A stretch of DNA of 64,000 nucleotides from a virus: positions 23,352-87,351 of IMG/VR virus record IMGVR_UViG_3300047323_000138; one strand, 5' to 3'. Of the stretch, positions 5,705 through 59,680 are shown piece by piece; position 1 is the first letter of the stretch, and each line of letters opens with the position of its first letter. The position numbers were made by a program, and so were the translations under genes. A model generated the notes under the pieces. It saw only the letters and a program-made list of their open reading frames with translations, searched no databases and was not told where the DNA came from.

Positions 5705-6109
5705 TTATTCGTCTTCATCAGGTTCAACGAACACCAACGACAAACGAGGTTTCATCTCGGACTTAATCTGTTCCGGGGTTTGTTCTTCCTCTTCAGGATC
5801 ACGCTTCCCTTCAGCACGGGCTTTGAAGTTTGTAATCTCATCGCTGCTAGCTGCTTTTTCAACGCTAACAATCGAGTTGATCACCCACTTTGCACTTGCA
5901 ACGGATTCAGAGTTAACAGTTTCGTTGTTAAGACTCTTATCAATCAAAGCTAGAGCAATATCTTCTCGTGTACGAAGCTTATCAGCCAACTCACGAAGTT
6001 TACTCTTTTTGATACGAACCTTACTATTTCCTTTCAAGTTTTGATTAGAGCGTTCCGCCCCGAATCGTGTACTTGGGCTAGGGTTTGGATTTGTAATCTT
6101 CTTGGTCAT
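5705..6109 (-). CDS. Terminase small subunit-like protein
   Basis: 134 residues with a basic N-terminus (NPSPSTRFGAERSNQNLKG, similar in style to phage proteins beginning with an FxxGxxSNxxG element), helices in the middle, and a very acidic C-terminus (KRDPEEEEQTPEQ, ending EPDEDE). Size, charge layout and location suggest the DNA-recognition subunit of terminase, but no decisive motif is present. The ATG overlaps the stop of the HNH gene. Its first 22 codons are echoed, mostly with other codons, by a stub at 6988-7062 on the far side of that HNH gene. Confidence 0.6.
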   Translation of the reverse strand: MTKKITNPNPSPSTRFGAERSNQNLKGNSKVRIKKSKLRELADKLRTREDIALALIDKSLNNETVNSESVASAKWVINSIVSVEKAASSDEITNFKARAEGKRDPEEEEQTPEQIKSEMKPRLSLVFVEPDEDE

Positions 6110-6798
6110 ACTAGTTCCTTATACTTCTGATGGAATATTTTACGGGCTTGGATATCTTTAATACCAAGCTCTCTTTGAATTTGGATTATTTTATAACCTT
6201 TCTCAGCCAACTCACGTCCAAGTCTGTATCCTTTGCGAGTTAGAAATCCAAAGTGAGTTATCTTATCCAAATCTCTCCAATCAAAAGGTAGTACATCTGT
6301 ATGGACCGAGTAGTTGTCACCGTTAATTACTTTCTCAACAGCCCAGCGACCACAATCAAAGTATTTACTCAGTGCTTTCACATCTAGACGTTCTTCTCTA
6401 AATTCAGTTCGAATAAAGTAAACATCATCTTCCGTGAATAAAGCAGTTGCATTATTTTCACCTTGTTGACCAAACAACCACCTATCACGAGTGCCGTGCT
6501 TTACAGAATCAGCTTGATTCTCTTTGTGAGTGCCGGTTGCAAGATGCAGAGGGTTGTTGCACAGGCTGTTACCACACAAGTGGCGGACAACTAGTTCGTC
6601 TGGAACTTCACCTACGAACAACGTATAGAAAAGTCGATGTGTATGCCAATTTTTATTGTCGTGTTTTTGTTGACCATAACCATCACCTTGCTTGAAGATG
6701 CTTTTACGCCACAACCAACAGCCTTGATGATTCTCAATAACATTTTCCATCAAATGAATCTTTAATTCTTCAATACTTCTTGAGTTTGGACCGGCCAT
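6106..6798 (-). CDS. HNH homing endonuclease
   Basis: 230 residues. HNH core VRHLCGNSLCNNPLHLATGT (about 81-100), followed by THKENQADSVKHGTRDRW, typical of phage HNH endonucleases. C-terminal helix-turn-helix-like segments (TEDDVYFIRTEFREERLDVK and GLTRKG/GYKIIQIQRELGIKDIQ) probably contact DNA. It overlaps the terminase-small-like gene by 4 bp. It is a free-standing element inserted between a 5' stub and a re-encoded start of the same gene. Confidence 0.93.
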   Translation of the reverse strand: MAGPNSRSIEELKIHLMENVIENHQGCWLWRKSIFKQGDGYGQQKHDNKNWHTHRLFYTLFVGEVPDELVVRHLCGNSLCNNPLHLATGTHKENQADSVKHGTRDRWLFGQQGENNATALFTEDDVYFIRTEFREERLDVKALSKYFDCGRWAVEKVINGDNYSVHTDVLPFDWRDLDKITHFGFLTRKGYRLGRELAEKGYKIIQIQRELGIKDIQARKIFHQKYKELV

Positions 6799-10952: not shown

Positions 10953-11618
10953 TTATCTGCCGCATGAACCTACAAGGCTACAATTCGGAAAGTTTGGACA
11001 GCCAGCATGTAGGTAGGAAAACGCATCAGAATACCTCTTGTCCAAAACTAATGCTTTATTGTTACCTATTGATGCTAGATGAATTGTTAATCCGCACTTA
11101 TGCAACCAATGAGATAAATTCTCATATGAATGCTCATCAATGTCTGGTGAAACTTTAGCCAATTGCTTATAGAATTCCTCATGACTTGCATCTTGGTCAA
11201 TCACTATACCTTTAATTTTTGAGATTATAGGTTGAGATGCCATGTTAGGGTTCAACAATTTATTATAAATACCATTATCTTTTTCCTCCCAAATCATATC
11301 TGTCTCAATTCCTTGAGCCTCAGATTGGGTGAGCTTCTCTACCACCTTCGTAACAACCAACTCCTTCCCTTCGTGGAAATCTTTATTCAATTGAGAACAA
11401 GAGCTTTTACCACTTACACAGTGGCGGGATCTGTTTCCTTTACCCATCCCAATATATCTGAGTACACCATCAACGTGGCAAACATACACGTAGTAAATAT
11501 TCTGATGCTCTGGCGAAACAGGTGTTTGCATTTTAACTCTTTCTTCTTCGGTTGTCTTGCGGTTAGGACGCTCAATAACTCGTTTGATTGGGTCCATAAA
11601 GTCTTTACTAATTTTCAT
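10953..11618 (-). CDS. GIY-YIG homing endonuclease
   Basis: 221 residues. Residues about 41-60 (YYVYVCHVDGVLRYIGMGKG) carry the two beta strands of a GIY-YIG core, followed by NRSRHC and a Glu (GIETDMIWEE) suitable for metal binding. The C-terminal half is probably a DNA-binding extension, ending with a Cys-rich tail (AGCPNFPNCSLVGSCGR). It sits 8 bp after the wHTH gene at 11627 and seems to be a free-standing mobile gene. Confidence 0.88.
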   Translation of the reverse strand: MKISKDFMDPIKRVIERPNRKTTEEERVKMQTPVSPEHQNIYYVYVCHVDGVLRYIGMGKGNRSRHCVSGKSSCSQLNKDFHEGKELVVTKVVEKLTQSEAQGIETDMIWEEKDNGIYNKLLNPNMASQPIISKIKGIVIDQDASHEEFYKQLAKVSPDIDEHSYENLSHWLHKCGLTIHLASIGNNKALVLDKRYSDAFSYLHAGCPNFPNCSLVGSCGR

Positions 11619-22639: not shown

Positions 22640-23291
22640 AGAAAATACTGCCGGAAGGGACTTCTTCACAACAGATATACATGGTTGCTTTGACCTGTTG
22701 CATGAACAAATGAGGCTACATGCTTTTGATACAACCAAGGATAGATTGTTTGTAGGAGGGGACAACGCGGACAGGGGTCCATATTCAGACACAGTATTAG
22801 ATTACATCTATGAACCTTGGTTTCACAGTATTAGATCTAACCATGAAGAGATGCTAATCACTGCTTTTGAGAATCCAACAAGCCGTAACGCTTATGAGAT
22901 GCTCTATTGTAATGGTGGTGAATGGTTCTATGATTGTACACATGAGAAGCAGAAAGCTATCTATGAGGCTTTCAAGTCTTTACCATTAGCAATTGAAATT
23001 GAAAATCCTCAAGGCCTGATCGGTATCATACATGCCCAAGTTCCTATGGATGATTGGGAAAAGTTTAGAGGCATGTCTGAACAGGATCTTTACTGGAGTG
23101 GGTACGCTATTGCACAATGGTCGAGAACCAAGTATGATAAACAAGATGTAACAGATGTGAAGGGTTTGTATAAGTGTTTCGTGGGACATAGCCCAACTAA
23201 CTCAGGCGAGGTTGAACAATTAGGTAACACTTACTACTCGGATCTGGGCAGCTTCTTTCGAGATAAAATATCTTTCATTGAGATCAACTAA
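22620..23291 (+). CDS. Serine/threonine protein phosphatase-like metallophosphatase
   Basis: 223 residues, GTG start at 22620 (AAGGAGAAAGAAG upstream). PPP-type motifs: DIHGC (about 19-23), GGDNADRGP (about 42-50), RSNHEEM (about 69-75), a late His in GIIHAQVP, and VGHSPT. Closest known type is the lambda-like protein phosphatase of phages, which dephosphorylates phosphoproteins or cyclic nucleotides in vitro. GGDNADRG replaces the usual GDxxDRG with an Asn. It is coupled to a second phosphatase gene upstream. Confidence 0.9.
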   Translation: MLIKRFKENTAGRDFFTTDIHGCFDLLHEQMRLHAFDTTKDRLFVGGDNADRGPYSDTVLDYIYEPWFHSIRSNHEEMLITAFENPTSRNAYEMLYCNGGEWFYDCTHEKQKAIYEAFKSLPLAIEIENPQGLIGIIHAQVPMDDWEKFRGMSEQDLYWSGYAIAQWSRTKYDKQDVTDVKGLYKCFVGHSPTNSGEVEQLGNTYYSDLGSFFRDKISFIEIN

Positions 23292-23292
23292 A

Positions 23293-23460
23293 ATGACACA
23301 AGAACAATATTACCTTCTAGAACGACTACGTACAAACCTCCTAGACGCTGCATCTGAGCTAGAACTTCTAGGCAAACTGCCAAGGTTTACACAGAATATT
23401 GATTGGATGTTGGATGAACTTGAAGAGTATATTAAATTGCAGAAGGAGGTTGATAAATGA
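23293..23460 (+). CDS. 55-residue acidic helical protein
   Basis: ATG 23293, one base after the phosphatase stop. MTQEQYYLLERLRTNLLDAA and a second helix. Unknown. Confidence 0.65.
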   Translation: MTQEQYYLLERLRTNLLDAASELELLGKLPRFTQNIDWMLDELEEYIKLQKEVDK

Positions 23461-23630
23461 AAGAGAAATCAGACGGTGAGATTTATGAAGATGTTAGCCG
23501 TAAAGCTAATCCAGAGCTACATGCACAAATAGATGCTTGGATACAAAGTCTTCATGAAGGGCAACAACAGCTCATCAATGAAGATGCACAATTGATTGAA
23601 GATAATTATTGGGAGTTAATATTGAAATGA
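23457..23630 (+). CDS. 57-residue acidic helical protein
   Basis: ATG overlaps the previous TGA. MKEKSDGEIYEDVSRKANPE then a long Gln/Glu helix. The stop overlaps the next ATG. Unknown. Confidence 0.65.
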   Translation: MKEKSDGEIYEDVSRKANPELHAQIDAWIQSLHEGQQQLINEDAQLIEDNYWELILK

Positions 23631-23986
23631 GTAATGTAAACTTTAAACCGATGGATGATAAGCAACGAGAGCAGGTGCGGCTCAAAAGGGCTGCTGACCA
23701 AGCTTATGCTAAAGAGAACTTGATTACAGATTTCAAAGACGAGCAGTTCTGGCGAGAGAATGCCTCCAAAGTGGCGCTACGCCTCCCCGGTTGGTGGATT
23801 CCTAGTAGCGAAACAAAATACATTCGACGTGCATGTAAAGCTTTAGGTGTAGATATTAATTTATTTGTGGAAAGCACAGGCTTTTCTAACTTAAATCAGC
23901 TCGTAAAGGCTAATTCTAAGTGGTCGGCTGTGGGTATGGTTGGGTTGTGTGTGGAATTTGCCATCGAAACTGGAAAGTTGGCGTAG
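23627..23986 (+). CDS. 119-residue unknown protein
   Basis: ATG 23627 overlaps the previous stop. Basic N-terminal helix (DDKQREQVRLKRAADQAYAK), later LRLPGWWIPSSETKYIRRAC. No known family. Confidence 0.72.
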   Translation: MSNVNFKPMDDKQREQVRLKRAADQAYAKENLITDFKDEQFWRENASKVALRLPGWWIPSSETKYIRRACKALGVDINLFVESTGFSNLNQLVKANSKWSAVGMVGLCVEFAIETGKLA

Positions 23987-24047
23987 TTTTTACCCTGCCA
24001 ATCAACGAAAAACTAAAATTCATCTCCGTACACAGGGGTATACTAAA

Positions 24048-24242
24048 ATGACAATTCTTGCTATATATTTAATCGGTGTAATCTTCACATTCTATTATGA
24101 GACAGAGGATATCTTCCTTGGATCGCTCCCTACATCTATTCAAGGGACAATTATATTCTCTTTATGTTGGCCCTTTAGCATAATCTTCGGAGCTGCTATC
24201 ATGTGGAAAGAGATTATTAAGAAACGTGGAGAGAAGAAATGA
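24048..24242 (+). CDS. Two-segment membrane protein
   Basis: 64 residues from ATG 24048. MTILAIYLIGVIFTFYYE and TIIFSLCWPFSIIFGAAIMW are membrane helices, with a Lys-rich tail inside. Unknown. Confidence 0.75.
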   Translation: MTILAIYLIGVIFTFYYETEDIFLGSLPTSIQGTIIFSLCWPFSIIFGAAIMWKEIIKKRGEKK

Positions 24243-24640
24243 CTGCTAATCGCACACTTGCTGAACAACGTGGATTATCTGAGTCCCAAATCCAAGAGAT
24301 TGATCGTCTGCACGAACATCTTGACAAAACAATAAACTATTTCATTGAACAAGGCTGGACACAGGCACGAGAAGATGAAATTCATGATATCGAATACCTC
24401 CTACAACAAGCTTGGGGATTTCCTAAAGACTGTGGATATCATCGTTATGCACACCAATATGCTTTTGTCTGTCAGTGGTTTGGTCGGACATTCAAGTGTG
24501 TAGAAACTGGGAATCAAATTACGTTAGGGAAGGACATCTACGAACGTCAGTATATTCCTTTCGGTAATTGTGCAATTGACTTGGGTGTCTTGAATGGCTA
24601 CTCTCGTCGTATTGGAAATATGGAGGAAATTAAGAAATGA
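24239..24640 (+). CDS. 133-residue unknown protein
   Basis: Helical N-terminal half (SQIQEIDRLHEHLDKTINYF). Later a His/Tyr/Cys-rich stretch (CGYHRYAHQYAFVCQWFGRT). No family recognised. ATGA overlap with the previous gene. Confidence 0.75.
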   Translation: MTANRTLAEQRGLSESQIQEIDRLHEHLDKTINYFIEQGWTQAREDEIHDIEYLLQQAWGFPKDCGYHRYAHQYAFVCQWFGRTFKCVETGNQITLGKDIYERQYIPFGNCAIDLGVLNGYSRRIGNMEEIKK

Positions 24641-24819
24641 CCCAACAATATTCACCCGAGAAACAATTGATCAAAGACTTCATCCGCTACATTTCTGATA
24701 ATCATAAGTGCTGTGTGGTGAGTTTTCCAGATGAGTTTGCTGCTGACAGCTATTTGAACTACAAATTTGTCAATACGTGTGAATTGCTGGATGAATTTAT
24801 TAGGGAGAGAAAGACATGA
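24637..24819 (+). CDS. 60-residue unknown protein
   Basis: MTQQYSPEKQLIKDFIRYIS, helical, two Cys in KCCVVSF. Coupled on both sides by 4-bp overlaps. Confidence 0.7.
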   Translation: MTQQYSPEKQLIKDFIRYISDNHKCCVVSFPDEFAADSYLNYKFVNTCELLDEFIRERKT

Positions 24820-25007
24820 GTTGGGTTCAAGTAGATGAAAAGACTGCTGAGTGGTTGTTACGACAACGTAATGACGACAACATCCTATACTCTTCGAACT
24901 CTTTGCACTGCTGGGATGAGATATTCACAGCAGGAGGTTGTAGATTTAAGGTGGAAGGTTCGTTCTACTCAGATGAAGTATCAGTCTATAAGGAAGAACA
25001 ACTATGA
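24816..25007 (+). CDS. 63-residue unknown protein
   Basis: MSWVQVDEKTAEWLLRQRND, then a beta-rich end with Cys (GGCRFKVEGSFYSDEVSVYK). Coupled overlaps. Unknown. Confidence 0.7.
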   Translation: MSWVQVDEKTAEWLLRQRNDDNILYSSNSLHCWDEIFTAGGCRFKVEGSFYSDEVSVYKEEQL

Positions 25008-25132
25008 ACCAAACAATTGAAGAAAGATTCCAATCCATAGAAGACCAACTCAAAGAGCTTCGCAAGGAATTGGAGAGTGACCTTGCGAAATATAGGGATA
25101 GTAGTTATTTAATTAAGAGGGAGAAATCATGA
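25004..25132 (+). CDS. 42-residue coiled-coil protein
   Basis: MNQTIEERFQSIEDQLKELR followed by more heptads. Overlaps the previous stop and the next ATG. Unknown. Confidence 0.65.
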   Translation: MNQTIEERFQSIEDQLKELRKELESDLAKYRDSSYLIKREKS

Positions 25133-25227
25133 ACAAAACAGAACTCATTGGAGTGGCAATAGCTATAACACTTATGCCTTATATTATTGGGGTGTGGTTA
25201 GTTTACAACATCAGGGGTGGGAAATGA
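25129..25227 (+). CDS. 32-residue single-pass membrane protein
   Basis: MNKTELIGVAIAITLMPYII then GVWLVYNIRGGK. One membrane helix. ATGA overlaps at both ends. Confidence 0.65.
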   Translation: MNKTELIGVAIAITLMPYIIGVWLVYNIRGGK

Positions 25228-25424
25228 ATCAGAAAGCTATTGAAACTTATGCGGTACATCTCTATAGAACACGAAAGCCTTGGTCTGATCCGTATGCATA
25301 TTACATTGAGTACACTGGTAACTATTATGGAGAAGACTCCGATGGAACAAGGATCTACAATTGGCAAGAATACGAACAAGAGTCTAGCGATGCTGTGGAT
25401 TATTGGTCAGGAGAAAGTAAATGA
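25224..25424 (+). CDS. 66-residue acidic Tyr-rich protein
   Basis: ATG 25224, chosen because it overlaps the preceding TGA. Text YAYYIEYTGNYYGEDSDGTR. Unknown. Confidence 0.68.
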   Translation: MNQKAIETYAVHLYRTRKPWSDPYAYYIEYTGNYYGEDSDGTRIYNWQEYEQESSDAVDYWSGESK

Positions 25425-25576
25425 AAGGTGAGCCACCAAAACCTCCACTTATGCGTGTAGGTGCTAACGGCAATCCATGCCCTCTATGTGGTAGTGGAAT
25501 GAAGCCTAATTGGCTGTGGCTAAAATCTAAGGGATGTTATCAGCCCGAGTGTGAGAATTATTGGAGGAACAGATGA
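25421..25576 (+). CDS. 51-residue zinc-finger-like protein
   Basis: NPCPLCGSGMKPNWLW, then GCYQPECENYW. CxxC plus CxxxxC about 19 residues apart suggests a single zinc site. Overlaps at both ends. Confidence 0.72.
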   Translation: MKGEPPKPPLMRVGANGNPCPLCGSGMKPNWLWLKSKGCYQPECENYWRNR

Positions 25577-25893
25577 CAGACACATACGAACGTTGTTCCT
25601 GTGGTGCTAGAGATAGGGCTAAGTGTAGTAAAGAGAGTGAACATGGTGGGAAGCTGTGTTTGAAGACAGAAGACAGTCTGTTTAAGAACTTTCGAGAAAC
25701 ACTTAATGGTGGCTTCTGTGCTGATATTGATTACGAGTCAGATGCTTGGCAGAAGGTTGTTGATGATTGGTCTGAGTTTAAAAGTCAGTGCGTGCCTATT
25801 CCTAAAGAGTTGTTTGAACGTATGGGTGTGATTAAAAAGAAAGCTGAAGAGAATAGGAAGAAGGACTTAGACAATGAAACCACTAATCATTAA
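25573..25893 (+). CDS. 106-residue Cys-rich unknown protein
   Basis: ATG 25573 overlaps the previous stop. N-terminus YERCSCGARDRAKCSKE with further Cys (GKLCLK) may bind metal. The second half is helical and charged. Unknown. Confidence 0.72.
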   Translation: MTDTYERCSCGARDRAKCSKESEHGGKLCLKTEDSLFKNFRETLNGGFCADIDYESDAWQKVVDDWSEFKSQCVPIPKELFERMGVIKKKAEENRKKDLDNETTNH

Positions 25894-47956: not shown

Positions 47957-48532
47957 ATGCAAGAAGAAGTTTGGAAAGATTACCCGCCGTATCCAGATCG
48001 ATATCAAGTGAGTAACTTTGGAAATGTGAGAAACAAACCTTTTATGAAGCAGTCTTCGAACAAGGGAGGCCCATATAGTTTCTTAACTAAACAAAAACAG
48101 TTGATTCCGCTATTAAACGAAGACGGTTATTGGCAACTTCGCTTGATGGTTGATGGCTTTAAATTTACAAGAAAGATACATAGGATGGTGGCAGAGACTT
48201 TTATTGAAAATCCTGAGAATTTACCTTGTGTAAATCATAAGAATTCCAATAGAGGTGACAACTCCCTAGAAAACTTGGAATGGTGTACAGAACAATACAA
48301 TGTGAAGCACAGCTATGACACGGGAAGTAATTCAAATGCTGGTGAAAAACATCCTAAAGCTTTGCTGAACAATGAAATTGTTTTAAGTATTAAAGAGCTT
48401 GAAATTGAGGGTTTGACCTGTAAAGAGATTTCTGATAAGCTTGATTTCAAATATCATACCGTCCACAAAGTATTGCATAGGAAGAATTGGAAAAATGTTG
48501 AACCAGAAGGCAGCAAGTGGGTTTTTCTATGA
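47957..48532 (+). CDS. NUMOD4-HNH homing endonuclease between helicase and polymerase
   Basis: 191 residues. NUMOD4-like start (VWKDYPPYPDRYQVSNFGNV), HNH core (HRMVAETFIENPENLPCVNH, then NSLENLEWCTEQYNVKHS), and a C-terminal helix-turn-helix (LTCKEISDKLDFKYHTVHKV). It begins at the base after the helicase stop, and its last 38 bases overlap the polymerase start, which squeezes it between two essential genes. Confidence 0.93.
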   Translation: MQEEVWKDYPPYPDRYQVSNFGNVRNKPFMKQSSNKGGPYSFLTKQKQLIPLLNEDGYWQLRLMVDGFKFTRKIHRMVAETFIENPENLPCVNHKNSNRGDNSLENLEWCTEQYNVKHSYDTGSNSNAGEKHPKALLNNEIVLSIKELEIEGLTCKEISDKLDFKYHTVHKVLHRKNWKNVEPEGSKWVFL

Positions 48533-50615
48533 CATAGAATGTAATGGATTCATTTTTGAATCAACAGTCATTTGGACAATTTGCTTCACTGATCTAGATA
48601 CGGGTGAGAAACTTAAGCTAAACCCATTCAAAGATAGTGAAGCAAAATCCAAGTTCCTAAAATGGTTGGACAGGTATGACACTCCAATTGTGGGGGGCCA
48701 TAACATTCTGGGCTTTGACCAGTTTGTATTGCTTAATCTGATGGACCTGAACTTTTCTGTTGGTAAGGATTTCATTGAAGGCCGCCCAGTTCAGTTTGTC
48801 GATACATATTATCTCAGCATGTTCCTCAACCCTGATCGTGTTGGACACAGTGTTGAGGCTTTTGGTGAAACTCTTGGACTGCCTAAGATTGACTGGCGAG
48901 AGAAAGCTATTGAGCTTGGCCTTATTGAAAAAGATAGTCCAAAAGGCCAGGAGTTTATGCAGTGGCATCCTGAGATGGATGTCTACTGTGAGCGAGATAC
49001 TGACGTAAACGTTTTGCTGTACCAATATCTTGCAAAAGAATGGAAAGATGTTTATGGGAAAGATTTCACAATCACTGATGCATTTAAGTGCGGGCAAAAG
49101 TCTTTCTACCTGATGTCCTGCCAAGAGCTTACAGGCTTTAAGTTTGATGTTGAAGGTGGCTTGAAGCTTAAAGAACGTATTGGTTTGATGATGGAAGAGA
49201 TTCGTGCAGAGGTTGAACCTAAACTTCCCCCAAGGGCTTTGAAGAAGTCTGAGGAAAAGTATTACAGTATGCCAGCTAAACCTTGGAAGAAATCGGGGGA
49301 TTATTCTTCTGCGTGGGAAAAGTTTGTTGAGAGGCATAGTGGTGTTCTAGATACAAACACAGGGTTGTGGGAATTCTATGGTGAAAAGTATCCGGTAGTT
49401 GCAGGAGCTATGCTGAACATTAAGCTCCCGATGGAGATGGCTAACCAAGATCAGATGAAAGATTGGTTTCTTGAACAGGGCTGGAAACCTACGCTCTGGA
49501 ATTTCCAGCGTGGTCCGGACGGTAAGCCAATGCGCGATCCTAAGACACGGCAATTGATTCAGACAAGTCCTAAGATTCAAGAGCAGGGTAAGATTTGCCC
49601 TAACCTTATGAAACTTGAGGGCGATATTGTTAAGTTGGTGGTAAAGTGGCTGAGTCTTCGTAATCGTCAATCTGTACTGGAAGGTTGGCTTACTAATGAT
49701 CGTTTGCAGATGGATGGCCGTATTGGTGCAGGACGTACAGGGATAGCCTCAACCCACAGACAAAAGCATAAAACCTGCGTCAATGTACCGAAAGCATCGG
49801 AGAAAGTATTACTCGGCAAGGAGTTCCGTTCTTTGTGGATTTCAGGCGATGGGATGCTTATTGCTGCCGGGGATGCCGCTGCGTTAGAGGGAAGGGTTCA
49901 AGGACATTACTGTTTTAAATACGATGATGGTGCAACTGCTGAAGAATTGCTGAAAGGTGATGTACACTCTAAGAATGCTTTTGCTTTCTTCGGTCACGAA
50001 ACTGATCTGCAACAATTTGATTTGCACAGTCCTGACTTCAACAAGGAACATCCTAAGTTCAAGCCATATCGGGATAAGAGTAAAAACGGGTATTATGCCT
50101 GTATGTATGGGTGTGCTGGGCCTAAATTAGCGTCCACTCTTGGACTCCCTGTTAAGATGGGGAATGACAAGTTGGAAGCTTTTTGGGAGGCAAATCCCGC
50201 TACAAAAGCCTTGAAAGAGAACTTGGAAAAGTATTGGACAAGTACAGGACGTGAGAAGTATCTTCCTGCAATTGATGGGCGTATGCTTTGCACCCGTAAG
50301 AAGTCTGCACTGCTCAATACAATTTTTCAAAGCTGTGGTGGTATTTCCATGGATTATGCGCTATGCTTCATGGACGCATGGCTTGGTGGTTTGAAGTGGA
50401 AAGATCGTAAACCTTACTATTTGTATAAAGGGCATTTGGTAATGCGTGTTTGCTATCAGCACGATGAGGTGGAATTTGAGTGTGAAGAAGTGATTGCTGG
50501 CGAGATTTCTCAGATGATTGAGAAAGCGATTGAAAAAGCTGGACTATATTTGAAACTTAAAGTACCATTAGCTGGTGAAGGGAAGACTGGAAAATCGTGG
50601 TGTGAAGTTCACTGA
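48495..50615 (+). CDS. Family A DNA polymerase (T7 gp5 type) with 3'-5' exonuclease
   Basis: 706 residues from ATG 48495. Longer in-frame starts lie deep in the HNH gene. Exonuclease: YDIECNG (Asp13, Glu15), HNILGFDQFV, and YCERDTDV. Polymerase: motif A GDAAALEGRV (about 459-468), motif B RDKSKNGYYACMYG (about 527-540), motif C YQHDEVEF (about 654-661). It replicates phage DNA with the primase-helicase and SSB. There is no long T7-type thioredoxin-binding loop that I can point to. Confidence 0.95.
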   Translation: MLNQKAASGFFYDIECNGFIFESTVIWTICFTDLDTGEKLKLNPFKDSEAKSKFLKWLDRYDTPIVGGHNILGFDQFVLLNLMDLNFSVGKDFIEGRPVQFVDTYYLSMFLNPDRVGHSVEAFGETLGLPKIDWREKAIELGLIEKDSPKGQEFMQWHPEMDVYCERDTDVNVLLYQYLAKEWKDVYGKDFTITDAFKCGQKSFYLMSCQELTGFKFDVEGGLKLKERIGLMMEEIRAEVEPKLPPRALKKSEEKYYSMPAKPWKKSGDYSSAWEKFVERHSGVLDTNTGLWEFYGEKYPVVAGAMLNIKLPMEMANQDQMKDWFLEQGWKPTLWNFQRGPDGKPMRDPKTRQLIQTSPKIQEQGKICPNLMKLEGDIVKLVVKWLSLRNRQSVLEGWLTNDRLQMDGRIGAGRTGIASTHRQKHKTCVNVPKASEKVLLGKEFRSLWISGDGMLIAAGDAAALEGRVQGHYCFKYDDGATAEELLKGDVHSKNAFAFFGHETDLQQFDLHSPDFNKEHPKFKPYRDKSKNGYYACMYGCAGPKLASTLGLPVKMGNDKLEAFWEANPATKALKENLEKYWTSTGREKYLPAIDGRMLCTRKKSALLNTIFQSCGGISMDYALCFMDAWLGGLKWKDRKPYYLYKGHLVMRVCYQHDEVEFECEEVIAGEISQMIEKAIEKAGLYLKLKVPLAGEGKTGKSWCEVH

Positions 50616-58009: not shown

Positions 58010-58443
58010 GACTACTCGGCATTGACGTAGACGGCGTAGTTGTAGACACACTAACCCTCTACAAACAAGCTTCACCTCACTTGGAAGATCCTCTAGACTT
58101 CTGGCGAGATGAAAACCTTTATGATAACCTTGTTCCAATGGAAGGTGCTGTAGAGAAACTTGAGCAGCTTAGTAAATACTTTGGTATAGTGTTTGTGAGC
58201 CGGTTGAAAGGTAATCATCACCGTTCGAAGGTTTACTTTCTGAAGAAGCACTTTCCGTTTATGACTGGCTTTATTGGTAGCCATGAGAAGTGGATCCTTA
58301 ATGATTCGTTAGTAGCTATGATTGACGACCTACCCGAGAATCTGGTAAAGTTCGATCCTGACAAGCGAGTACTGTTTGGTAGTAAAGACTTTAAAGATTG
58401 GAAGTCGTTTGATGTTAAATATTTCTGTGAAAAATATTTGTAA
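58006..58443 (+). CDS. HAD-type 5'(3')-deoxyribonucleotidase
   Basis: 145 residues. LGIDVDGVVVDTL (nucleophile Asp), FVSRLKGNH (motif II), and MIDDLPENLVKF (motif IV). Expected to dephosphorylate dNMPs. ATGA overlap with the diphosphohydrolase gene. Its stop is 15 bp before the MazG stub. Confidence 0.85.
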   Translation: MRLLGIDVDGVVVDTLTLYKQASPHLEDPLDFWRDENLYDNLVPMEGAVEKLEQLSKYFGIVFVSRLKGNHHRSKVYFLKKHFPFMTGFIGSHEKWILNDSLVAMIDDLPENLVKFDPDKRVLFGSKDFKDWKSFDVKYFCEKYL

Positions 58444-58458
58444 TTAAGGAGAGTTTTG

Positions 58459-58521
58459 GTGTCAAAGAAAGAATGTATTAAGTTTGGTTATGCAATCGGT
58501 AATCAACAATGGCAAGATTAA
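58459..58521 (+). pseudogene. 20-residue stub repeating the start of the MazG-like gene
   Basis: GTG with AAGGAGAGTTTTG. Encodes MSKKECIKFGYAIGN then QQWQD and TAA. The intact gene at 59195 encodes the identical MSKKECIKFGYAIGN, but 10 of the 14 codons after the start differ (for example Ser TCA/AGT, Cys TGT/TGC, Gly GGT/GGA, Tyr TAT/TAC, Asn AAT/AAC). The endonuclease ATG (58509) lies in its last codons. Original gene start cut off by the element. Confidence 0.82.
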
Positions 58522-59183
58522 AGACAAAATCACAAAGGGGTCTATCAGACTTCAAAGATGCTAATGGCTTGTGGGTTCGAAGTTATACGCTGAGAACAGA
58601 CGAAGATACCCAGACTCAGTACCACACAAGGGCTGGTGTTTTATTTTCTCACATCAAAGATCGTTGTAGATCCGACAGTTACTATGTAAAGAACAAACCG
58701 GCATACAAAGATTGTGAAAATGATTTTAAAGACTTTCAAAGTTTTACTGACTGGTGCCAAGATCAGTATGGGTACATGAATAGAGAGGATAAGCTCAATC
58801 AATATTGGTCAATTGATAAAGATATTCTAGTGCCCGGCAACAAAGTCTACAGTGAAAGCACTTGTATTTTTGTGCCGTCTTATATAAACTCTGTATTTGC
58901 ATACAGTCAGGCAACAAGAGGCGAGTACCCAATTGGTGTAGACTTTAAATCTAGGGAAGGTAAATTCAGAAGTTCCTGTAGAGACAATGATGGGAAACAG
59001 AGGCACCTTGGGTATTTTACAGAGCCCTTTGAAGCACACCGAGCATGGCAGCTATTTAAAGTGGGAGTTATTAGGAAATGGTCAGAAGACATTGACCTAG
59101 GAGTAAAACTACAAACTGCTTTAGTGGATAGAGCTGAAATCATTGAAAAAGATCACGCCAATAAAATCATTACGTTATACTGA
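58509..59183 (+). CDS. Putative homing endonuclease, LDKD family (copy 3)
   Basis: 224 residues. VLFSHIKDRCRSDSYYVKNK, FQSFTDWCQDQYGYMN, WSIDKDILVPGNKVYSESTC, FVPSYIN, then PIGVDFKSREGKFRSSCRDN and LGYFTEPFEAHRAWQLFKVG. Inserted after codon 15 of the MazG-like gene with a re-encoded start downstream. Confidence 0.85.
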   Translation: MARLKTKSQRGLSDFKDANGLWVRSYTLRTDEDTQTQYHTRAGVLFSHIKDRCRSDSYYVKNKPAYKDCENDFKDFQSFTDWCQDQYGYMNREDKLNQYWSIDKDILVPGNKVYSESTCIFVPSYINSVFAYSQATRGEYPIGVDFKSREGKFRSSCRDNDGKQRHLGYFTEPFEAHRAWQLFKVGVIRKWSEDIDLGVKLQTALVDRAEIIEKDHANKIITLY

Positions 59184-59194
59184 GGGGAAGGGTT

Positions 59195-59680
59195 TTGAGT
59201 AAGAAAGAGTGCATCAAATTTGGATACGCAATTGGGAACATGCCTGCAATGGGCGACCACTGGGAAGTTTGGAAGCAAGTGAAATCTCAATCCAAACTTA
59301 TCCTAGAAGAAGTGAATGAACTTGAGGATGCTTGTTCAGAGGAAGACCTTCTAGAAGTGTTGGACGCTGTAATGGATATCAAATATCTGAACACATACCT
59401 TGAACATTTGTTGGAAGCTTACGGCTGCAAAACTAAGCTTGCTTGGGAAACAGTATGTTCGAATAATGCTCAGAAGATTACAACTAGCTACACCTACGCA
59501 CAAAGTAGTAAAGAATATCTAGAATCTCGTGAAGATGGTGAATTCTATATTGATGAAACTTTGTTTGAAGGTGAACGTCTGTACACTGTGAAGCGTATGT
59601 CTGATAATAAAGTAATGAAGCTGAAATCCCATGTACGGCCTGAGCTTAATGGTTGTATCCCTGAAGAGTTTAAAGTATGA
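59195..59680 (+). CDS. MazG-like nucleotide pyrophosphohydrolase
   Basis: 161 residues, TTG start (GAGGGGAAGGG). The MazG-type acidic pairs are visible: LILEEVNELEDA and LLEVLDAVMDIKYL, i.e. ExxxE and ExxxD for magnesium. Hydrolyses NTP or dNTP to monophosphate. The C-terminal 60 residues are beta-rich and of unknown use. Its first 15 residues are also encoded by the upstream stub. Confidence 0.82.
   Translation: MSKKECIKFGYAIGNMPAMGDHWEVWKQVKSQSKLILEEVNELEDACSEEDLLEVLDAVMDIKYLNTYLEHLLEAYGCKTKLAWETVCSNNAQKITTSYTYAQSSKEYLESREDGEFYIDETLFEGERLYTVKRMSDNKVMKLKSHVRPELNGCIPEEFKV

What the first reader, a model, noticed from the sequence alone, without database searches (positions are those of the whole stretch)
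58459..59680. Endonuclease inside a MazG-like gene, with a stub and a synonymously re-encoded gene start
Seen directly: GTG-started stub encoding MSKKECIKFGYAIGN, then the LDKD-family endonuclease, then the intact MazG-like gene whose first 15 residues are identical, although 10 of the 14 codons after the start use another synonymous triplet (about 12-13 of 42 bases changed, no residue changed). A fresh duplication would keep the DNA. Either the element brought a diverged start that it cannot cut, restoring the gene, or homing replaced the gene with that of a distant donor and left the recipient start behind.
Basis: partly seen in the sequence, partly recalled or inferred. Interest (0 to 1): 0.93.

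Follow-up and report, generated by a model that had tools for sequence, protein, structure and literature searches.

The report
Nuclease that replaces gene ends
In a bacteriophage, a homing-type DNA-cutting gene sits inside the start of a MazG-like gene and is followed by a complete copy of that gene whose start encodes the same amino acids in different DNA letters, while the original start is left behind as a stub; the same layout recurs at other genes and in other phages, suggesting a natural "cut, insert and repair the damaged gene" element.

Summary
The stub (58459-58503) differs from the mazG starts of six distinct endonuclease-free relatives by only 1-5 of 42 nt. The intact gene's start differs from the stub by 12 of 42 nt (10 of 14 codons), all synonymous, while the rest of the gene is ordinary. 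So the stub is the native start, and the intact copy's start arrived with, or diverged alongside, the endonuclease. Natural homologues down to about 58% overall identity show no comparable start.

The layout recurs. A second element in the same window (6106-6798, minus strand, a different HNH family) sits between a native start stub and an intact terminase-linked gene with a diverged start on a lineage-typical body. Two IMG/VR loci repeat it with gene starts (L059, L235), one less cleanly (L150), and one mirror-image locus repeats it with a gene end (L162). That is six of 214 endonuclease flanks examined, and none of 30 in isolated phages.

Best explanation: homing cuts the native gene end, and repair inserts endonuclease plus a diverged, presumably uncuttable, gene end that restores the gene. 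In three cases the stub overlaps the endonuclease start codon. Close precedents exist in fungal mitochondria (Allomyces, Glomus, Tremella); I found none in phages. Cutting, immunity and selected recoding remain untested.

The parts
58443..58458 (+). native leader with Shine-Dalgarno (AATTAAGGAGAGTTTTG), retained upstream of the stub
   Evidence: near-identical leader before the intact mazG start of most endonuclease-free relatives (L002, L004-L008); L003 has a different leader
58459..58521 (+). stub ORF: native mazG start (native through about 58507, AATCAAC), then non-mazG sequence to the TAA at 58519-58521
   Evidence: 1-5 of 42 nt different from the mazG starts of six distinct endonuclease-free relatives
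58509..59183 (+). HNH-AP2-type homing endonuclease (224 aa, phrog_953); its ATG overlaps the stub stop by 13 nt
   Evidence: phrog_953 E 1.7e-52; model pLDDT 94.6; C-terminal AP2/ERF match by profile and by fold
59183..59194 (+). new Shine-Dalgarno-like leader AGGGGAAGGGTT for the intact gene
   Evidence: read directly from sequence; inference
59195..59242 (+). diverged start of the intact gene (codons 1-16): 10 of 14 codons synonymously changed, plus Q16M
59195..59680 (+). intact MazG-like / PRA-PH-type pyrophosphohydrolase gene, lineage-typical from codon 17
   Evidence: Pfam PRA-PH; 93-97% aa identity to L002-L006
6988..7062 (-). second element: stub MAKKITNPNPSPDTRFDGPRSNRK*, native start of a terminase-linked small gene
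   Evidence: 1 of 22 codons silently different and 0 aa changes from endonuclease-free L017; left flank 95.8-100% identical to L017's record
6106..6798 (-). second element: HNH_3 endonuclease of a different family
   Evidence: Pfam HNH_3 E 9e-13; phrog_59
5705..6109 (-). second element: intact terminase-linked gene with diverged start (10 of 16 same-residue codons changed, 6 aa changed) on a lineage-typical body

Best explanation
This is a homing endonuclease element that carries, fused behind it, a diverged copy of the start of its own target gene. Proposed steps: (1) the endonuclease cuts the native mazG near codons 15-17 in an endonuclease-free phage during co-infection (inferred from where the stub ends); (2) break repair copies endonuclease plus diverged start from the donor, joining at the gene body on the right (inferred; that the divergence stops at codon 16/17 is shown); (3) the native leader and first 15 codons stay behind as a stub, overlap the endonuclease ATG, and could deliver ribosomes to it by termination-reinitiation (overlap shown, coupling inferred); (4) the new start has its own ribosome site and restores a full gene (reading frame shown); (5) neither half should be cut again, because the stub lacks the right half of the site and the intact copy lacks the DNA of the left half, and the two starts share no more than 8 nt, too little for easy looping-out (sequence shown, consequences inferred). 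How long the converted tract runs into the gene varies between cases.
For: Stub DNA is native and the intact start is not. The divergence is confined to the duplicated segment. Same layout with a second, unrelated endonuclease in the same genome, where the body is lineage-typical and the start is not. Same layout in L059, where the stub matches the allele in L073 and the gene matches the allele type of L086/L056/window; in L235; in L150, less cleanly; and mirror-imaged at a gene's 3' end in L162. Six of 214 unique endonuclease flanks; best mismatched-pair null scores in that pooled run were 42 (sense) and 40 (antisense), against 51-102 for the five cases found by score; the sixth, L059, was recognised from its flanks and alleles, not by score. 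Endonuclease ATG overlaps the stub stop by 13, 11 and 14 nt in the window, L059 and L235; overlaps of this kind are described for T4 segF, segC, mobA and mobC (PMC2988022). Across the six stub/intact pairs, same-residue codons differ at 42 versus 43.1 expected at synonymous saturation. Fungal mitochondrial elements show the same signature (PMC3630166, PMC7315562).
Against: No cleavage or homing was observed. No donor phage carrying this endonuclease and start was found. The layout is a minority among endonucleases (6 of 214; 0 of 30 in isolated phages), so it is not how this family usually sits. Expression by coupling is inferred from overlaps only. L223 and other weak candidates were not distinguishable from the null, and L150 looks like nested insertions that are hard to order.
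Confidence: 0.72

Rival explanations
1. The diverged start was selected: synonymous changes accumulated in the element because they prevent self-cutting and prevent recombination between stub and intact copy, which would delete the endonuclease. (A refinement of the best explanation, not an alternative to the layout.)
For: 10 of 14 synonymous changes with no residue change exceeds every natural homologue pair, including pairs at 58-70% identity; longest shared run is 8 nt; changes spread evenly to the start codon, farther than a half-site needs.
Against: Over six cases synonymous change is at saturation, not beyond it (42 versus 43.1 expected, P = 0.66; mazG alone P = 0.07-0.13); several other cases also changed residues, so plain divergence suffices for them.
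Confidence: 0.4
2. The diverged start is simply the natural mazG start of an unsampled, distant donor lineage, transferred with a short conversion tract; the silent changes are ordinary drift. (Also a refinement of the best explanation.)
For: L059 carries a whole foreign allele after its endonuclease and keeps the native stub; the second window case has a start whose residues resemble L016; aggregate divergence equals saturation.
Against: No such mazG allele among nine loci found by scanning IMG/VR for KFGYAIG and MSKKECI in every codon spelling, nor in bacterial genome contigs; distant homologues L187 and L189 differ by three residues in this stretch from the query lineage.
Confidence: 0.5
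3. Plain tandem duplication of the gene start during insertion, followed by divergence of one copy.
For: A real example of such a repeat with identical DNA exists in a relative (L055, 30 nt, no endonuclease), so the process occurs.
Against: Divergence is far above that of the gene body, and it falls on the functional copy while the dispensable stub stayed native.
Confidence: 0.05
4. Assembly chimera or an unrelated small gene upstream.
For: These are metagenome-derived records; reads were not available.
Against: Two cases in one record and others in independent records; no relative carries the stub as a separate gene.
Confidence: 0.03
5. A group I intron with an internal endonuclease.
For: Endonuclease inside a gene; L150 and the second window case have about 200 nt of noncoding sequence after the stub.
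Against: No Rfam intron match; in the mazG case there is no room for an intron before the endonuclease, and the downstream gene is complete.
Confidence: 0.02

Closest known systems
Mobile endonuclease elements of fungal mitochondria with duplicated gene ends (Allomyces atp6; Glomus atp6, atp9, cox2, nad3; PMC3630166)
   Same: Endonuclease inserted in a gene; a foreign gene end carried alongside; native end displaced and 91-98% identical to a relative while the carried end is 64-81% in DNA but 94-100% in protein.
   Different: Fungal mitochondria, C-terminal, in-frame fusion in some; here phage, mainly N-terminal, HNH-AP2 or HNH_3 endonucleases, stub upstream overlapping the endonuclease start.
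[quoted passage not shown]
   Same: N-terminal fragment of the host gene carried and exchanged.
   Different: Introns; here no intron was detected and the genes are complete without splicing.
T4 free-standing homing endonucleases, intronless homing (SegF, SegG, MobE; PMC2988022)
   Same: Phage endonuclease next to its target gene, spread with co-conversion of diverged flanking alleles, short overlaps with the upstream gene.
   Different: Mostly inserted beside the target, or splitting it (mobA, Aeh1 mobE); no native gene-end stub plus carried replacement end is described in the passages read.
IPA-HNH (HNH plus AP2) homing endonucleases of ICP1 and other phages (PMC10448857)
   Same: Probable same endonuclease class: HNH family with C-terminal AP2 domain, near terminase, polymerase and nucleotide-metabolism genes.
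   Different: Gene-end replacement was not reported in the passages read.
Engineered home-and-rescue gene drives (own knowledge)
   Same: Insert into a target gene and carry a recoded rescue copy that resists cutting.
   Different: Designed; here natural, and resistance and drive are untested.

Membership tests
HNH-AP2 (IPA-HNH type) homing endonuclease | Match to a phage HNH endonuclease family | tested here: met
   phrog_953, E 1.7e-52
HNH-AP2 (IPA-HNH type) homing endonuclease | C-terminal AP2 DNA-binding domain | tested here: met
   AP2/ERF by profile, E 6e-5, and by fold, 1gcc probability 1.00 though E 0.034
HNH-AP2 (IPA-HNH type) homing endonuclease | Recognisable HNH catalytic core | tested here: inconclusive
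   No Pfam HNH hit and no HNH structure among the best PDB fold matches; only conserved DKD..N..Y..C..F..N columns
HNH-AP2 (IPA-HNH type) homing endonuclease | Cuts an endonuclease-free allele and is copied into it | not testable with these tools
   needs protein and phage crosses
Gene-end-replacing mobile endonuclease element (Allomyces/Glomus/Tremella kind) | Endonuclease inserted within a protein gene relative to empty relatives | tested here: met
Gene-end-replacing mobile endonuclease element (Allomyces/Glomus/Tremella kind) | Displaced native end is closer to relatives in DNA than the functional carried end | tested here: met
   1-5 versus 9-12 of 42 nt
Gene-end-replacing mobile endonuclease element (Allomyces/Glomus/Tremella kind) | Carried end keeps protein sequence | tested here: met
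   residues 2-15 identical; less so in other cases
Gene-end-replacing mobile endonuclease element (Allomyces/Glomus/Tremella kind) | Donor lineage of the carried end identified | tested here: inconclusive
   no mazG donor found; partial likeness to L016 in the second case only
Group I intron | Intron RNA structure | tested here: not met
   no Rfam match
T4-type intronless homing | Free-standing endonuclease absent from close relatives, linked to its presumed target | tested here: met
T4-type intronless homing | Excess inheritance with co-conversion in mixed infection | not testable with these tools
   needs co-infection; mosaic tract in the second case is consistent

The most novel reading that the evidence does not exclude
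A natural rescue drive in phages: endonucleases of at least two families travel as a unit with a selected, silently recoded end of their target gene, cutting the wild-type gene, restoring its function and protecting the restored copy from cutting and from repeat recombination.
Probability: 0.35. Interest if true: 0.88.

Novelty: new variant of a known kind. Interest (0 to 1): 0.72.

Why it matters
If right, it explains how a phage endonuclease can sit inside a functional gene without an intron, intein or a split protein: it brings its own version of the gene end. It would be a phage counterpart of the fungal mitochondrial gene-hybrid elements, and a natural parallel to engineered rescue drives. 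It also makes directly testable predictions: the stub marks the cut site, the intact start should resist cutting, and restoring identity between the two starts should make the endonuclease gene unstable. It may be a route by which phage gene ends are exchanged between lineages, which would mislead gene trees and gene calling.

Tried and rejected
Rfam search for introns around the second window case and L150: nothing. Search for the exact endonuclease elsewhere in IMG/VR: none. mazG donor in bacterial genome contigs: none. Relatives' other repeats: L055 is an identical-DNA duplication without an endonuclease; L054 and L070 hits are ordinary small-gene similarities; L068's endonuclease is intergenic. 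Isolated phages: 20 single loci plus ten endonuclease-like genes in Pseudomonas phage KIL2 gave no clear case; the Vibrio phage 1.119.O small ORF before its endonuclease is not a portal-gene stub. An alignment of the L059-type endonucleases was too diverse to scan with. Over-avoidance of identity (recoding beyond saturation) is not supported in aggregate. Fold search found no HNH structure, only the AP2 part.

Full report
Setting. The window is part of an 87,351-base IMG/VR virus record. Its MazG-like protein has distant relatives (about 30-36% identity) in Felix O1-type and similar phages. No isolated phage has similar DNA at this locus.

The stub begins at 58459 (GTG) and encodes MSKKECIKFGYAIGN; native sequence runs to about 58507, after which the frame stops at 58519-58521. 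The endonuclease ATG is at 58509, so the two reading frames overlap by 13 nt. The endonuclease ends at 59183 and the intact gene starts with TTG at 59195. Residues 2-15 match exactly, 10 of 14 codons differ and 12 of 42 nt differ. Residue 16 is M instead of the Q found in the close relatives.

Which start is native? Nine endonuclease-free mazG loci were found; two of them (L007, L008) are identical here, six distinct ones are close (81-97% identity) and two are distant (L187 at 69%, L189 at 59%). In the six close ones the start differs from the stub by 1, 5, 2, 2, 2 and 1 of 42 nt, and from the intact copy by 12, 9, 12, 10, 12 and 11. The leader AATTAAGGAGAGTTTTG before the stub is also the relatives' leader in all but one. 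The stub is therefore the original start. From codon 17 on, the window gene differs from its relatives no more than they differ from one another.

How unusual is the intact start? Third-position sites invariant in stub and relatives changed at 6 of 9 in the start versus 2 of 48 in the body (p = 6e-5); codons seen in no relative are 8 of 16 versus 10 of 145. Natural pairs of this gene, down to 58% identity, show at most 6 of 11 synonymous changes in the start, and those pairs also carry three residue changes; the pair L187/L189 (64% identity) shows 4 of 14 and none. The window start shows 8-10 of 14 and no residue change against its own 94-97% identical lineage. Against full synonymous saturation the excess is only suggestive (P = 0.07 to 0.13).

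The layout recurs. An unbiased scan of the window for nearby translated repeats found, apart from tail-gene repeats and weak hits, just two pairs, both flanking endonucleases. The second is the HNH_3 gene at 6106-6798 (minus). Upstream lies a stub MAKKITNPNPSPDTRFDGPRSNR that matches endonuclease-free L017 with one silent codon change; downstream the intact gene has a start with 10 of 16 same-residue codons changed and six residues changed, on a body that is ordinary for L009, L012 and L014. The C-terminal end and the flanks resemble L017's record again, so the converted stretch looks like endonuclease plus most of the gene, from a donor whose gene already had a start out of step with its body. 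In L059 an exonuclease-like gene shows a stub matching the allele in L073, then an endonuclease, then a gene of the other allele type. L235 repeats the layout for a 94-residue gene. L150 repeats it for a gene next to the large terminase, though with extra leader-like sequence that suggests nested insertions. L162 is the mirror image: a minus-strand gene whose last 15 codons are repeated beyond an oppositely oriented endonuclease, 13 of 15 residues and 34 of 45 nt alike. In total six of 214 unique endonuclease flanks, with highest mismatched-pair null scores of 42 and 40 in that pooled run (54 in one earlier subset); five of the six score 51-102, while L059 was recognised from flank and allele comparison and not by score. 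Nativeness of the stub is firm for the window's two cases and L059, moderate for L235 and L150, and untested for L162. None of 30 endonuclease loci in isolated phages showed it.

The endonuclease. It matches phrog_953, models with high confidence (pLDDT 94.6), and its C-terminal part matches plant AP2/ERF domains by profile and fold, as in the HNH-AP2 class described for ICP1 (PMC10448857). Pfam finds no HNH domain and no HNH structure was matched, so the catalytic core is inferred from family membership.

Mechanism. The common features are a native gene end left as a stub, an endonuclease directly beside it or separated by about 200 nt, and a complete gene carrying a diverged end. Homing explains these: the stub marks where the recipient was cut, and repair copied endonuclease plus the donor's gene end. 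The donor end must differ from the recipient's where the enzyme reads it. The stub lacks the right half of the presumed site and the intact copy lacks the DNA of the left half, so both should be immune. The two mazG starts share no run longer than 8 nt, which should also keep the element from being looped out. Overlap of the endonuclease ATG with the stub stop (13, 11 and 14 nt in the window, L059 and L235) resembles overlaps described for T4 segF, segC, mobA and mobC, where reinitiation is proposed (PMC2988022). Cutting, immunity, stability and coupling are inferences.

Selected recoding or a distant donor? For mazG neither can be excluded. The lack of any residue change with 10 of 14 silent changes, beyond any sampled natural pair, favours recoding within the element. 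The aggregate of six cases, at but not beyond saturation (42 versus 43.1), and the plain allele swap in L059 favour ordinary divergence in donors. I hold these near even, with a slight lean to a distant donor.

Comparison with the known. Fungal mitochondrial elements in Allomyces and Glomus carry foreign C-termini with displaced native ends and the same DNA-versus-protein contrast, and Tremella introns carry N-termini. T4 free-standing endonucleases replace diverged alleles but sit beside their targets or split them. My literature searches found no phage description of this layout; the library lacks most subscription journals, so this is weak evidence of absence. I file it as a new variant of a known kind.

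Noticed in passing
window 47957-48532 and 48441-50615: A NUMOD4/HNH_3 endonuclease ORF overlaps the first codons of the DNA polymerase ORF in another frame; whether the polymerase start was replaced was not worked out.
   Followed up: no
L055:9538-10400 (minus): A small gene start (MKKKFKIIDT) is repeated with 30 identical nt on either side of a non-endonuclease insertion of about 0.6 kb: a plain duplication, useful as a contrast.
   Followed up: partly
L150:2230-2345: Between stub and endonuclease lies sequence resembling the leader of the same gene in L274, as if two insertions were nested.
   Followed up: partly
L162:2190-3013: The last 24 nt of the endonuclease ORF read antisense through the end of the neighbouring gene, so the carried gene end and the endonuclease share DNA.
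   Followed up: partly
window 10953-11618 (minus): An ORF with a GIY-YIG-like start (YYVYVCHVDGVLRYIGMG); window and relatives are dense in endonuclease genes, with 5-8 phrog_953 matches in most near-complete records.
   Followed up: no
own record 23153-25581 versus G012: The large-terminase stretch of this genome does not align with G012, although both sides do at 89-90%, so it too may have been exchanged.
   Followed up: no
L223:1370-2160: Weak stub-like similarity (7 of 12 residues) in the expected positions around an endonuclease; not distinguishable from the null.
   Followed up: partly
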